From: Actinomycetota bacterium
GTDB lineage: Bacteria > Actinomycetota > Thermoleophilia > Solirubrobacterales > 70-9
DNA: 53,043 bases
Direction: 5' to 3'
Assembly: GCA_005885405.1 (NCBI GenBank)
Contig: VAYN01000017.1
Span: forward strand, 1-53,043
Positions within the stretch are counted from its first letter, which is position 1, and each line of letters begins with the position of its first letter. The position numbers and the translations under genes were made by a program. Positions 8,198 to 11,329 of the stretch are shown here, one piece after another. The notes under the pieces are model-generated. The model ran no database searches, was not told where the DNA came from, and worked only from the letters and a program-made list of their open reading frames with translations.

Positions 8198-9517
8198 TCA
8201 GCCGTGCCGGGCGGCCTTGACCAGCGACGGCCCCGGCTCGACGACCTGGAACGGAACGAAGGTCTTGCGCGCGACCGAGACGGTGATTGGGCCGACGCTC
8301 GGGTCGCCGCTGGGGAGGATCTCGAAGCTGCCGGTGATGCCATTGCGGACCGAGGTGGAGCGGACGGCGTCGATCGTGCCGGTGCGGTCGCGTCCTTTGC
8401 CGATCGCGTCGAGGACGACGCTTGCGGCCTGGCCCGCGTAGGGCGCATACAGTTCGACCGGCCCGCCGAGGTCCTTTTCGAGTTCGCCGACGAGCTTCGC
8501 GCCGGGCCCGGTGAGGTTCTGCGGCACCTGACCCGGGACGCTGGCGAACATCCCCTTCGAGGCCTTGCCGGCGAGGTCGATCGTCGACTGCTGGGCGAAG
8601 CCGTCGGGCGCGAGCAGCTCGACGCCGCTGTTGGGGCCGAGCACCGCGACCTTGTCCTTGATCAGCCGGGCGCCGTTGGACTCGGTCAGGCCGGCGAGCA
8701 GGACGGCGTCCGGCGCGGTGTCAGCGACCATCCCCATCAGCCCTCGGTAGCTCGAGGCGTTGACGTTCCAGGCCTTGAAGCCGACGACGTGGATGCCGAG
8801 CTTGCGGGCGGCGCCGCGGAAGGTCTTCGCCTGGCCGAGGCTGGTCGGGTCTTTGCCGGCGTAGAGGACGTAGGCGTCCTTCACTCCCCGCTTGCGGGCG
8901 AAGCTCGCCAGCCCGGCGCCCTGGTAGGCGTCGTTGGGGACGACCCGGGCGTAGTTCCGCCGCCCCGGATAGAGGCTCTTCGGCTCGCCCTTGCCGCAGC
9001 TCGGGCTCGAGTGGGTGAGGCACATCAAGGTGTTGCCGGGGGAGACCATCGCCACACCGCCGCCCGGCGCCTGGCTGAGGATCGGGATCATCACCTCGGC
9101 GCAGCCGGAGTTGTAGGTGCCGATCACCCCGAGGACGCTGGGGTTGGCCGCGTAGGCCTTGGCGTTCGCCTGACACTGCGCCTTCGTCCAGAGGCCGGTC
9201 TTGGCGTTCGAGTCGTCGCAAGCCTGGAAGCCGACTTTGACCCCGCCCGCCTGCCAGTTGGCGCCCTCGAGGACGAGCCGGATCGCGTCGTTCATCTGCA
9301 GCGAGCGCTGCTTCGAGTCCCCCTGCAGCGGCAGGTCGGAAACGACGAGCGCCTCGGGGTCGCCTTTGCCGCCGTACTGGAGCGGCCCGCAGGCCGAGGA
9401 CCCGACCGCACTGGCCGCCGGCGCCGCGGCGTCGCTGTTGCCGCCGAGCACGAAGACCGCAAGCGCGCCGAGCAGGAGGGCCGCAAGGCTAGTGGTCTTC
9501 AGCAGGCGCAGGGACAA
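8198..9517 (-). CDS. Branched-chain amino-acid type ABC substrate-binding protein (LivK-like)
   Basis: A 439-residue exported protein with a signal peptide (about 1-31, no lipobox cysteine) and a type I periplasmic-binding fold of the Peripla_BP_6/LivK family. The family pattern is seen in the N-terminal ALVVSDLPLQGDSK strand, VLGVIGTYNSGCAEVMIPIL and the later YAPYAGQAASVVLDAI segment. Members bind amino acids, amides or urea, or act as ligand sensors. No permease or ATPase partner is encoded nearby, so it is an orphan that may serve a distant transporter. The next gene in the same direction is the voltage-type channel, 97 bp downstream. Ligand unknown. Confidence 0.85.
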   Translation of the reverse strand: MSLRLLKTTSLAALLLGALAVFVLGGNSDAAAPAASAVGSSACGPLQYGGKGDPEALVVSDLPLQGDSKQRSLQMNDAIRLVLEGANWQAGGVKVGFQACDDSNAKTGLWTKAQCQANAKAYAANPSVLGVIGTYNSGCAEVMIPILSQAPGGGVAMVSPGNTLMCLTHSSPSCGKGEPKSLYPGRRNYARVVPNDAYQGAGLASFARKRGVKDAYVLYAGKDPTSLGQAKTFRGAARKLGIHVVGFKAWNVNASSYRGLMGMVADTAPDAVLLAGLTESNGARLIKDKVAVLGPNSGVELLAPDGFAQQSTIDLAGKASKGMFASVPGQVPQNLTGPGAKLVGELEKDLGGPVELYAPYAGQAASVVLDAIGKGRDRTGTIDAVRSTSVRNGITGSFEILPSGDPSVGPITVSVARKTFVPFQVVEPGPSLVKAARHG

Positions 9518-9576
9518 GACGAGACCACCCTAGCCCCTACGCCGGGCGCCCCCGCGTTGGGCCCCAGAAACGACAA

Positions 9577-9597
9577 GACCCGCCGCGAAGGCGGGTC
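9577..9597 (-). terminator. Intrinsic terminator of the minus-strand RNA
   Basis: An 8-bp GC-rich stem (GACCCGCC 9577-9584 with GGCGGGTC 9590-9597) and a GCGAA loop. Read on the minus strand it is followed by TTGTCGTTT, a T-rich tract. It therefore fits termination of a minus-strand transcript coming from about 9788, and lies 60 bp before the binding-protein start. Confidence 0.65.
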
Positions 9598-9787
9598 GAG
9601 TCTGGCGATGCGGGGAACCACCCCACAGGCGGCCGACACCTGTGCCTCAACTTAGCACGCTGCCCGCCATCCTCGACCCGCTGCCGCGGTATGTCTGCGG
9701 AGGGCGCCGGACTCGAACCGGACCCGGAGGTGAACCGGGCAAAGTGGGTGTCGGCCACCTGGAGGCACCTGCCTCCATCGCCCTCCG
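9577..9787 (-). ncRNA. Candidate structured RNA beginning with a tRNA-like (8/4, long variable arm) fold
   Basis: No credible protein is encoded between the exporter stop (9887) and the binding-protein start (9517). On the minus strand, 9698-9786 folds by hand into an 89-nt class II cloverleaf. It has an 8-bp acceptor (GGAGGGCG/CGCCCTCC), a 6-bp D stem with a 4-nt loop, a 5-bp anticodon stem, a variable arm with a 5-bp stem, a 4-bp T stem with the canonical TTCGAGT loop, and G at position 73. The 8/4 geometry resembles selenocysteine tRNA and the reported allo-tRNAs. The anticodon loop, however, reads CCGACAC: it lacks U33 and is not UCA, and CCA is not encoded. The RNA appears to run on to the terminator at 9577, giving about 210 nt. 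A competing long-range pairing exists (9627-9640 with 9747-9760). SRP RNA and tmRNA signatures were sought and not found. Identity is open. Confidence 0.45.
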
Positions 9788-9794
9788 GCGGCCG

Positions 9795-9822
9795 ATCCTA
9801 GGAGTGAAATTCTGCACTTCAA
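9795..9822 (-). promoter_or_regulatory. Sigma-70-like promoter for the candidate RNA
   Basis: On the minus strand TTGAAG (9817-9822), a 16-nt spacer and TAGGAT (9795-9800) resemble -35 and -10 boxes. The expected start point, about 7 nt further on, falls at or within a base or two of the 5' end of the tRNA-like fold (9787). The exact agreement with the fold supports both features. Confidence 0.5.
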
Positions 9823-9886: not shown

Positions 9887-11329
9887 CTAAGAGCTTGATT
9901 CCGCCACCGGCTCCGCCCCCAGCTCCACGTGCGCGCGGCTGTCCGCGTTGCGGATCAGGAGGAGCGTCGCGACGAGGCCGAGGATGGCGAAGCCGGCGCC
10001 GACGAGGAAGGCGGAAGAGAAGCCGTCGGTGAGGACGGCGGGGTCGCGGGAGTCGCCGATCTCGGAGTTGGCGATCGCGGCGAGGATCGCGAGGCCGAGG
10101 GCGCCGCCGACCTGCTGGGAGGTGTTGATGAGGCCGCTGGCGAGGCCCTGCTCGCGGTCTTCGACGCCGGAGACGGCGGCGATCGTGACCGGGACGAAGG
10201 CGAAGCCGAGGCCGACGGCGGCAAAGAGGGAGGGGCCGAGGATGTCGGCGAGGAAGGTGCCGTCGGGGCTGATCTGGGAGAACCAGAGGAGGCCGATGGC
10301 GATGAAGACCATGCCGGCGGCGAGGATCGGCTTGAAGCCGACTTTCGTCACCAGGCCGGAAGCGACGCCGGCAGAGAGCATGATCGCGACCGCCAGCGGC
10401 AGGTAGGAGAGCCCGGCCTTAATCGCGCTGTAGCCGAGCACCTGCTGCATGTAGAGCGAGATGAAGAAGAACATCGAGAAGAGCGAGGCGCCGACGAGGA
10501 TGCCGACGACGTTGGCGCCGGTGATCGTCCGCAGGCGGAAGATCGAGAACGGGACGAGGGGCGCGCGGGAGCGGCGCTCGATCGCGACGAAGGCGATCAG
10601 GAGGATCGCGCTGGCGGCGAGGACACCGATCGTCTGGGTCGAGCCCCAGCCGGCGTCTTCGGCGTCGAGCAGGGCGAAGACGAGGGCGGAGAGCCCGAGC
10701 GTGATCGTCGTCGCGCCGGCGACGTCGAAGGTCCGCACCTCCTGCTCGGCGCGGGATTCGGCGATCAGGCGCGGGGCCAGCGCCGCGGCGGCGATCCCGA
10801 TCGGGACGTTGACCCAGAGCACCCACTCCCAGCCGAGGTATTCGGTGAGGATGCCGCCGAGGAGGACGCCGGCGGCGCCGCCGGAGCCCGCGACCGCGCC
10901 CCAGATCCCCAATGCTTTGTTGCGCTCGGCGCCGTCTTTGAAGGTGGTGGCGACGATCGAGAGCGCAGCGGGGGAAAGGATCGCGGCGCCGAGGCCCTGG
11001 ACAGCGCGGGCGACGACCAGCTGCCCGGAGCTGCTCGCCAGCCCGCCGAACAGCGAAGCGATCGCGAAGAGCACGAGCCCGAACATGAAGACGCGCCGCC
11101 GCCCGAGCAGGTCGGCGAGGCGGCCGCCAAGCAGGAGGAAGCCGCCGAAGGTGAGGACGTAGGCGTTGACCACCCAGGGCAGACTGCTCTCAGTGAAGTC
11201 GAGCGCTTCGCCGATCGTCGGCAGGGCGACGTTGACGATCGAGGCGTCGAGCACGACCACGAACTGGGCCGAGCAGAGCAGGATCAGGGCGATCCAGCGC
11301 TTGTCGCGGGCCTCGGCGGCGTCGGTCAC
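9887..11329 (-). CDS. DHA2-family MFS drug exporter (EmrB/QacA type, 14 helices)
   Basis: A 480-residue proton-coupled efflux pump of the inner membrane. The N-terminal helix carries QFVVVLDASIVNVALPTIG, the family motif D1 region. The loop after helix 2 has GGRLADLLGRRR (motif A), and a motif C-like stretch (GSGGAAGVLLGGIL) marks the antiporter class. The length and about 14 hydrophobic segments match DHA2 rather than the 12-helix DHA1 group. Substrates are probably hydrophobic drugs or dyes but cannot be assigned. ATG at 11329 faces the DUF2277 gene divergently across 87 bp. No dedicated regulator is adjacent. Confidence 0.92.
   Translation of the reverse strand: MTDAAEARDKRWIALILLCSAQFVVVLDASIVNVALPTIGEALDFTESSLPWVVNAYVLTFGGFLLLGGRLADLLGRRRVFMFGLVLFAIASLFGGLASSSGQLVVARAVQGLGAAILSPAALSIVATTFKDGAERNKALGIWGAVAGSGGAAGVLLGGILTEYLGWEWVLWVNVPIGIAAAALAPRLIAESRAEQEVRTFDVAGATTITLGLSALVFALLDAEDAGWGSTQTIGVLAASAILLIAFVAIERRSRAPLVPFSIFRLRTITGANVVGILVGASLFSMFFFISLYMQQVLGYSAIKAGLSYLPLAVAIMLSAGVASGLVTKVGFKPILAAGMVFIAIGLLWFSQISPDGTFLADILGPSLFAAVGLGFAFVPVTIAAVSGVEDREQGLASGLINTSQQVGGALGLAILAAIANSEIGDSRDPAVLTDGFSSAFLVGAGFAILGLVATLLLIRNADSRAHVELGAEPVAESSS

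What the first reader, a model, noticed from the sequence alone, without database searches (positions are those of the whole stretch)
9577..9822. Independent minus-strand RNA gene starting with an 8/4 tRNA-like fold
A sigma-70-like promoter, a hand-foldable 89-nt class II cloverleaf starting at the predicted transcription start, and a terminator with a T-rich tail line up over about 240 bp without coding potential. The acceptor/T-stem geometry (8+4), 6-bp D stem with 4-nt loop, long variable arm and G73 recall selenocysteine tRNA and the described allo-tRNAs. The anticodon loop CCGACAC lacks U33, however, and the RNA seems to extend about 110 nt beyond the cloverleaf. It could be a new tRNA-mimic RNA, a degenerate allo-tRNA or an unrecognised housekeeping RNA.
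Basis: partly seen in the sequence, partly recalled or inferred. Interest (0 to 1): 0.82.

Follow-up and report, generated by a model that had tools for sequence, protein, structure and literature searches.

The report
tRNA mimic with antisense partner RNA
A small stand-alone gene pair found here appears to make an odd transfer RNA and, next to it, a second tiny RNA that matches its anticodon arm, which could be a poison tRNA kept in check by its own antidote RNA.

Summary
In detail: minus strand 9697-9788 encodes an intact 8/4 class II cloverleaf (RNA1), with a promoter-like sequence before and a terminator after it. Covariance models recovered relatives in the window's class and in named Chloroflexi and Falkowbacteria records and IMG/VR contigs. 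The cloverleaf covaries strongly. In 34 of 43 loci an exact 9-18 nt complement of that locus's own anticodon arm lies within 300 nt (2.9 expected from other loci; 0 of 34 ordinary tRNA-Ser/Sec genes). In 32 of these 34 it starts 4-11 nt after a TANNNT box; in 27 of 34 a terminator-like hairpin follows. RNA2 is downstream in 31, upstream in 2, divergent in 1. RNA1 keeps Y33, A37 and mostly G34 and G73; its anticodons mostly read frequent codons (GUC, AUC, CUC, UUC, GGC). Shown from sequence: two genes and private pairing. Inferred: RNA1 is seryl-charged and toxic by missense decoding, RNA2 its antitoxin (about 0.5). No transcript data.

The parts
9795..9822 (-). RNA1 promoter-like sequence: TTGAAG (9822-9817), 16-nt spacer, TAGGAT (9800-9795), ending 6 nt before the modelled 5' end
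   Evidence: read from sequence; TANNNT 4-12 nt upstream in 20 of 40 family members, without a control; not reported by the strict consensus scan
9697..9788 (-). RNA1: 8/4 class II cloverleaf. Acceptor 9786-9779 / 9706-9699, D arm 9776-9761, anticodon arm 9759-9743, variable arm 9740-9722, T arm 9721-9707, G73 at 9698
9748..9754 (-). RNA1 anticodon loop CCGACAC; anticodon GAC at 9752-9750, C33, A37
9649..9654 (-). RNA2 -10-like box TAAGTT, ending 8 nt before the anti-anticodon; its -35 match is only 3 of 6
   Evidence: family: TANNNT 5-14 nt before the complement in 27 of 30, 2.6% of control positions
9631..9640 (-). RNA2 anti-anticodon GGTGTCGGCC, exact 10-nt complement of RNA1 anticodon-arm bases 9756-9747
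9612..9624 (-). RNA2 small hairpin GGGG-TGGTT-CCCC, similar to GGGG-TNGCT-CCCC in several relatives
9577..9597 (-). Terminator hairpin with tail TTGTCGTTTC: end of RNA2, probably also of an RNA1 read-through transcript. A near-identical hairpin follows the MFS gene in G009, where no RNA1 was found
9570..9642 (-). RNA2 as a whole (ends approximate): short antisense RNA, 64 nt from anti-anticodon to the end of the terminator stem

Best explanation
The locus is a two-RNA module. RNA1 is an 8/4 allo-tRNA-like RNA whose transcription probably begins at or next to its acceptor stem. RNA2 is a separate short antisense RNA with its own promoter-like box; its first 9-18 nt complement RNA1's anticodon arm, and in most members a small hairpin and a terminator follow. 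Shown by sequence: both gene structures, their pairing, and the private coevolution of each pair. Inferred: RNA1 is charged by SerRS (G73, GGAG acceptor like the host tRNA-Ser genes, long variable arm; serine identity does not use the anticodon) and, when free, puts serine at frequent hydrophobic or glycine codons, which is toxic. RNA2 covers the anticodon and neutralises it. The module would then act as a stand-alone RNA-RNA toxin-antitoxin or selfish element inserted between ordinary genes. Confidence in the two-gene architecture alone is about 0.93.
For: (1) Cloverleaf covariation on 37 sequences: 94.8% of cells paired, 24 of 29 pairs with two-sided changes; slid controls 42-51% paired (alignment fitted to the structure). 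(2) Own-arm exact complement of at least 9 nt within 300 nt in 34 of 43 loci; other loci's flanks give 2.9 expected; summed length 465 against a maximum of 349 in 50,000 permutations. Ordinary tRNA-Ser/Sec genes: 0 of 34. (3) TANNNT ends 4-11 nt before the complement in 32 of 34; with a 5-14 nt limit 27 of 30 against 2.6% of control positions. (4) Terminator-like hairpin after it in 27 of 34 against 3 of 34 shuffled. (5) RNA2 is downstream in 31 of 34, divergent in L078, upstream in the Falkowbacteria copies L107 and L177, so it behaves as a separate unit. (6) Three loci with the same flanking gene end in one genus (L085, L089, L131) have different arms and RNA2 segments that follow, with some wobbles or mismatches. 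(7) Paralogs L066 and L077 differ at 9 of 93 bases, 7 of them in the anticodon arm. (8) Extra RNA2-like units without a cognate RNA1 beside them in L120 and L130; the L120 one matches the L078 arm, the best of 43 arms, over 13 nt. L117 has an eroded cloverleaf (29.5 bits) with an RNA2-like unit kept. (9) Anticodons GAC 11, GAU 11, GAG 7, GCC 5, GAA 2 of 41; Y33 and A37 41 of 41; G73 39 of 43; the codons they read rank 2, 6, 4, 1 and 10 in four window genes. (10) Patchy presence: no match in the 11 other genomes of the genus, most of them incomplete drafts; where a Pfam family was found, flanking genes were ordinary and differed between loci (20 loci looked at).
Against: No transcript, charging or toxicity data. 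RNA1 of the window has C33 and a GCAG 3' end without encoded CCA (the three tRNA-Ser genes of this genome that I read also lack it). The -35 of RNA2 is weak in GC-rich members, 3 of 6 in the window; at least 4 of 6 in 11 of 34 loci with a -10 box, control 10%. Nine of 43 loci lack an exact complement of 9 nt or more: L085, L089 and L180 pair with wobbles or mismatches, L066, L077, L079, L181-L183 do not. Counting the three cloverleaf-like loci that I left out (L115, L117, L134) as misses it is 34 of 46. By duplex energy the own flank is the best of all 43 flanks in only 24 loci (mean -28.4 own, -20.4 others). The 9 Acidobacteria allo-tRNA-like loci have no such partner (1 of 9 with a 9-nt downstream match). 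The models were trained on family members, so conservation counts lean towards them. Selection for pairing would also fit a non-toxic regulated tRNA.
Confidence: 0.55

Rival explanations
1. Regulated allo-tRNA: RNA1 is a useful, non-toxic tRNA giving controlled mistranslation, or decoding particular messages, and RNA2 tunes its dose.
For: Intact tRNA core with Y33, A37, G73. An 8/4 and a 9/3 allo-tRNA from Silvibacterium bohemicum inserted serine in E. coli (review PMC7609411, passages).
Against: Sporadic presence in close relatives and change of anticodon and arm between orthologous or paralogous copies fit a conserved decoding role poorly.
Confidence: 0.2
2. Non-decoding tRNA mimic: RNA1 is a decoy or sponge (for RNA2, a tRNA nuclease or a synthetase) and does not enter translation; RNA2 releases or is titrated by it.
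For: C33 in 6 of 41 loops; in the predicted folds of several members the bases before the acceptor pair with bases 73 and 74, which would hide the 3' end.
Against: Conserved G34 and A37 and serine-type acceptor ends; the start of RNA2 changes together with RNA1, so it has no obvious fixed outside target.
Confidence: 0.15
3. Cis-acting attenuator or T-box-like leader: one long transcript whose anticodon loop pairs with the downstream segment and switches the terminator for the next gene (the SBP gene at 9517).
For: The whole 214-nt RNA folds well (z -4.06); some linker hairpins carry short complements.
Against: RNA2 lies upstream or divergent in L107, L177 and L078; it has its own -10 box; neighbouring genes differ in the loci examined; two same-genus genomes keep the MFS-SBP order without the element.
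Confidence: 0.06
4. Ordinary or degenerate tRNA (Ser or Sec) with chance complementarity nearby.
For: Rfam tRNA-Sec 44.4 bits.
Against: No UCA anticodon; permutation and ordinary-tRNA controls; strong covariation.
Confidence: 0.02

Closest known systems
allo-tRNAs, 8/4 type (Mukai et al. 2017, known here only through passages of the review PMC7609411)
   Same: 12-bp acceptor branch split 8+4, long variable arm, serine-type identity elements, diverse sense anticodons. [quoted passage not shown]
   Different: The review passages that I saw mention no partner antisense RNA. The review names Clostridia, Proteobacteria and Acidobacteria; most members found here come from the window's class, which I sampled most, and have G34 anticodons. 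The 9 Acidobacteria loci found here (5 of them with loop CTTATAA, anticodon UAU) have no family-like RNA2 beside them.
RNA toxin with RNA antitoxin such as CreTA (PMC8501985, abstract read)
   Same: An RNA toxin acting on the tRNA pool, held down by an RNA antitoxin; small loci.
   Different: CreT is a short-ORF RNA that sequesters a rare tRNA, and CreA guides a CRISPR effector to repress it. Here RNA1 is itself tRNA-like and RNA2 can pair with it directly. TA type names are from recall.
tRNA-Sec (RF01852)
   Same: Long acceptor branch, 6-bp D stem with 4-nt loop, long variable arm, G73.
   Different: 8/4 split (the 8/5 of bacterial tRNA-Sec is from recall and the review); anticodon is not UCA; below the gathering score. 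Model R3 scored the ordinary tRNA-Ser and tRNA-Sec genes tested at 54.7 bits or less, against up to 91.8 bits for family members; the ranges overlap at the low end (family members down to 44.1 bits with R2).
T-box leaders (from recall)
   Same: An RNA segment that pairs with an anticodon loop, near a terminator.
   Different: 9-18 nt pairing that reaches into the stem, own -10 box, no amino-acid related gene seen as a constant neighbour, no Rfam T-box match in the window.

Membership tests
allo-tRNA (8/4) | 12-bp acceptor branch as 8+4 with long variable arm | tested here: met
allo-tRNA (8/4) | serine-type identity: G73, G1-C72, G2-C71 | tested here: met
   G73 39 of 43; 1-72 GC 37 of 37, 2-71 GC 35 of 37; three host tRNA-Ser genes begin GGAG with G73; identity rules from PMC9976931 passages
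allo-tRNA (8/4) | used in translation | not testable with these tools
   needs charging and reporter assays
tRNA-Sec | UCA anticodon and score above the family threshold | tested here: not met
   anticodon GAC; 44.4 against 47 bits
RNA-RNA toxin-antitoxin | dedicated RNA able to pair with the toxin RNA, encoded beside it | tested here: met
   34 of 43 loci, permutation control, ordinary-tRNA control 0 of 34; transcription of RNA2 itself not shown
RNA-RNA toxin-antitoxin | toxicity of one RNA and rescue by the other | not testable with these tools
   bench test needed
T-box riboswitch | matches the Rfam model; leader of an amino-acid related gene | tested here: not met
   no match; neighbours vary, though a few are amino-acid genes such as the pair resembling proB and proA in L127

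The most novel reading that the evidence does not exclude
A new RNA-only toxin-antitoxin class in several phyla: the toxin is a seryl-charged missense tRNA aimed at the most used hydrophobic and glycine codons, and the antitoxin is a short 'anti-anticodon' RNA whose first bases coevolve with the toxin's anticodon arm, so that each copy is insulated from the others.
Probability: 0.45. Interest if true: 0.95.

Novelty: categorically new. Interest (0 to 1): 0.87.

Why it matters
According to the review PMC7609411 the natural role of allo-tRNAs is still speculative. A dedicated antisense partner with covarying specificity gives them one that can be tested directly: a controlled, possibly toxic, decoding RNA. 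It would be a toxin-antitoxin system in which the toxin is a tRNA and the antitoxin is its base-paired mask. It would also be a natural way to switch one tRNA off by a short RNA, and it explains some odd 'tRNA' calls (Gly, Ile, Val, Leu with long variable arms) in bacterial genomes.

Tried and rejected
tRNA-Sec or a degenerate tRNA-Ser: rejected. Plain DNA search for relatives: 4 of 101 genomes matched; besides the window's own genome these were the terminator only (G009), a 27-base match inside an apparent coding region (G083) and a short tRNA-like fragment (G071). Attenuator for the SBP gene: disfavoured because two same-genus genomes keep MFS-SBP without the element and RNA2 can be upstream or divergent.

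Link with a particular neighbouring protein: none seen. I made 68 Pfam queries (67 distinct proteins) around 20 loci in seven calls; 11 of 40, 16 of 20 and 4 of 8 gave a family. Many picks were wrong-frame ORFs, so I picked again by GC3. The other loci's neighbours were not examined. PADLOC on 10 proteins gave a hit for one. PHROGs on 8 proteins of L135-L137 gave a terminase in L136.

A second viral pattern gave 0 contigs. The phylum-wide R3 scan (346 genomes) brought 27 new loci; I checked 14 with ARAGORN and all 14 were tRNA-Ser or tRNA-Sec. L181-L183 have no RNA2 nearby. Three of the 27 pattern stretches (L106, L117, L122) had no R2 match; L117 gave a weak one later. For L066 and L077 an antisense transcript on the opposite strand (TGGTAAGAT box in the variable arm, antisense-facing terminator upstream) is only my reading of the sequence.

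Rows dropped before the 43-locus count: exact duplicate cores; three tRNA or irregular tRNA-like hits (L131:1989, L134:5844, L134:5592); 9 Acidobacteria loci; and L115 (partial, 35.6 bits), L117 (eroded, 29.5 bits) and L134:5501 (54.2 bits, inside a cluster of irregular tRNA-like sequences). With those last three, and looking only downstream on the same strand, the earlier count was 30 of 40. The 4-11 nt limit for the TANNNT box was set after seeing the distances. One search used 34 loci with a -10 box: L085 and L180 added, L071 and L120 (no box) left out. The ordinary-tRNA control used 32 loci that I picked from those held.

Literature: Mukai et al. 2017 is not held, so its text was not seen. 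'Allo-tRNA' with 'toxin-antitoxin' found one paper, the review PMC7609411; 'allo-tRNA' with 'antisense' found one, unrelated by its title; the listings showed nothing on such a pair. Papers opened: PMC7609411 and PMC9976931 (passages), PMC8501985 (outline and abstract).

Full report
Observation. The minus strand at 9697-9788 forms an 8/4 cloverleaf (-53.5 kcal/mol, z -4.08). The nearest Rfam family is tRNA-Sec at 44.4 bits, below its gathering score of 47. Because that model had matches in all 101 genomes and 14 of 14 control genomes, this only says that the RNA is of tRNA descent. ARAGORN reports nothing in the window. The terminator is found by the scan; the promoter is a weak consensus match (8 of 12, read by eye). 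Window coordinates of the parts were checked.

Setting. Upstream on the same strand is an MFS transporter gene (stop codon at 9887-9889), downstream a substrate-binding-protein gene (8198-9517). Nine MFS orthologues of the genus were compared, the window's own included; one (L043) is cut by a contig end. In two of the other seven (L038, L041) an SBP relative (77% and 72% identity) follows the MFS gene after a short gap and there is no element; in the other five no SBP lies within the 1.5-kb flank. In G009 a near-identical terminator follows the MFS gene and no cloverleaf was found. The element therefore looks inserted in this lineage (inference). R1 found no copy in the other 11 genomes of the genus, most of them incomplete drafts, but a second copy in the window's own genome, G000 C5:29872-29963, L078.

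Relatives. A covariance model from the window sequence alone (R1) matched 12 of 232 genomes of the order at E <= 0.001, with 16 matches, the window's own included. Three of these (L074-L076) are ordinary tRNA-Ser by ARAGORN. A model from 14 sequences (R2) gave 31 matches of 54 bits or more in 23 of 399 genomes of the class; the 14 training sequences are among them. Weaker matches bring 120 of 399 genomes over E 1e-4; from the phylum scan with R3, 14 of 14 such loci checked were tRNA-Ser or tRNA-Sec, so the weaker ones are mostly background (inference). A T-arm pattern scan of the named genome collection returned 27 stretches, among them Conexibacter isolates, Solirubrobacterales bacterium 67-14 (three copies), a Chloroflexi MAG, a Falkowbacteria MAG and Acidobacteria MAGs; R2 matched 24 of the 27. 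Four IMG/VR contigs also matched; three of them (L135-L137) have RNA2 and L136 has a terminase gene about 11.5 kb away. R3 searches of the phyla of the Falkowbacteria and Chloroflexi genomes gave 2 of 239 and 5 of 251 genomes at E <= 1e-8, the starting genomes included.

Cloverleaf. On 37 distinct sequences 94.8% of cells pair, 24 of 29 pairs show two-sided changes, and slid structures give 42-51%. The alignment was fitted to the model structure, so these numbers lean towards it; the contrast is nevertheless large.

Anti-anticodon. I asked whether each anticodon arm has an exact complement within 300 nt, on either side and either strand. In 34 of 43 loci it is at least 9 nt. Other loci's flanks would give 2.9. 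The summed length is 465, and the largest of 50,000 permutations is 349. Counting three left-out loci (L115, L117, L134) as misses it is 34 of 46. By duplex energy the own flank is better on average (-28.4 against -20.4) and the best of all 43 in 24 loci. Among 34 ordinary tRNA-Ser and tRNA-Sec genes treated alike, none reaches 9. Of nine Acidobacteria allo-tRNA-like loci (five with the UAU loop CTTATAA), one has a 9-nt downstream match and none a family-like RNA2. Six loci found last, after the pairing had been noticed but with a model that knows nothing of it, serve as a check: L177 and L184 have an exact complement after a -10 box, L180 has one with wobbles, L181-L183 have none.

RNA2. In 32 of the 34 loci a TANNNT box ends 4-11 nt before the complement (limit set after seeing the data). 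With a 5-14 nt limit it was 27 of 30 in an earlier set, against 2.6% of control positions. A -35 of at least 4 of 6 is seen in 11 of 34 loci with a box (control 10%); it is 5 of 6 in L078, L107, L135-L137, L180 and L184, and 3 of 6 in the window. A terminator-like hairpin follows in 27 of 34 (shuffled control 3 of 34); from the complement to the end of its stem is 54-79 nt in 26 of these 27, while in L093 the caller picked an inner hairpin. L107 and L177 have T-rich hairpins that failed the caller's limits. RNA2 lies downstream in 31 of 34, divergent upstream in L078, and upstream in the two Falkowbacteria copies L107 and L177. These placements argue that RNA2 is a gene of its own and not the tail of RNA1.

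Private pairing. Three loci with the same flanking gene end in one genus (L085, L089, L131) have different arms, including a change between GAU and GAC, and RNA2 follows with some wobbles or mismatches. Paralogs L066 and L077 in one genome differ at 9 of 93 bases, 7 of them in the anticodon arm; neither has a separate RNA2. L120 and L130 carry an extra RNA2-like unit with no cognate cloverleaf beside it. L117 has an eroded cloverleaf with an RNA2-like unit. In G027, L079 lacks its own RNA2 but could pair with that of L071 (-24.7 against -32.2 kcal/mol for the true partner; unrelated pairs average -20.4).

What RNA1 would decode. Of 41 seven-base loops, Y33 and A37 are in all, G34 in 37, A35 in 34. 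Anticodons are GAC 11, GAU 11, GAG 7, GCC 5, GAA 2, and five singletons. G73 is in 39 of 43. In four genes of the window (1988 codons) the codons GGC, GUC, CUC, AUC and UUC rank 1, 2, 4, 6 and 10. Three host tRNA-Ser genes start GGAG and have G73 without encoded CCA. [quoted passage not shown] A seryl tRNA reading NUC and GGC codons would be harmful; this step is inference.

Function. The most likely reading is an RNA-RNA toxin-antitoxin or selfish module (about 0.5). A regulated useful allo-tRNA (0.2) and a non-decoding mimic (0.15) are not excluded. A cis attenuator is disfavoured by the placement data. Shown from sequence: two gene structures, conserved fold, conserved private pairing. Not shown: transcription, charging, decoding, toxicity, neutralisation.

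Novelty. RNA1 alone is a new member of the allo-tRNA kind, which I know here through passages of the review PMC7609411; the original paper is not held. The pairing with a dedicated antisense RNA was not found in the held literature (listings). I therefore rate the module as categorically new, with the caution that its function is untested.

Noticed in passing
L070, L072, L077-L080, L173, L174, L177, L181-L183: ARAGORN calls several family members ordinary tRNA-Gly, Leu, Ile, Ser, Val, Arg or Pro, so public annotations may list them as normal tRNAs.
   Followed up: partly
L080, L067, L086, linker after the cloverleaf: A second, shorter anti-anticodon with a GGG..CCC hairpin sits inside the linker hairpin of RNA1 (read); in several others the linker loop carries a 4-6 nt complement.
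   Followed up: partly
L134:5501-5917: A predicted viral contig with several irregular tRNA-like sequences in a row.
   Followed up: no
L104, L109, L112, L113, L116, L118, L119, L121, L128: Acidobacteria 8/4 allo-tRNA-like genes, five with loop CTTATAA (anticodon UAU), without a family-like RNA2 beside them.
   Followed up: partly
L127:4258-7375: Two cloverleaf copies in tandem between genes resembling proB and proA (gene names from recall of the Pfam domains).
   Followed up: no
L102:6425-7696: A DUF4143/AAA protein near one copy matches PADLOC candidate model PDC-S01.
   Followed up: no
L004:1501-1549: A short tRNA-like fragment upstream of an apparent methionyl-tRNA synthetase gene in G071; the gene name is from reading the sequence.
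   Followed up: no
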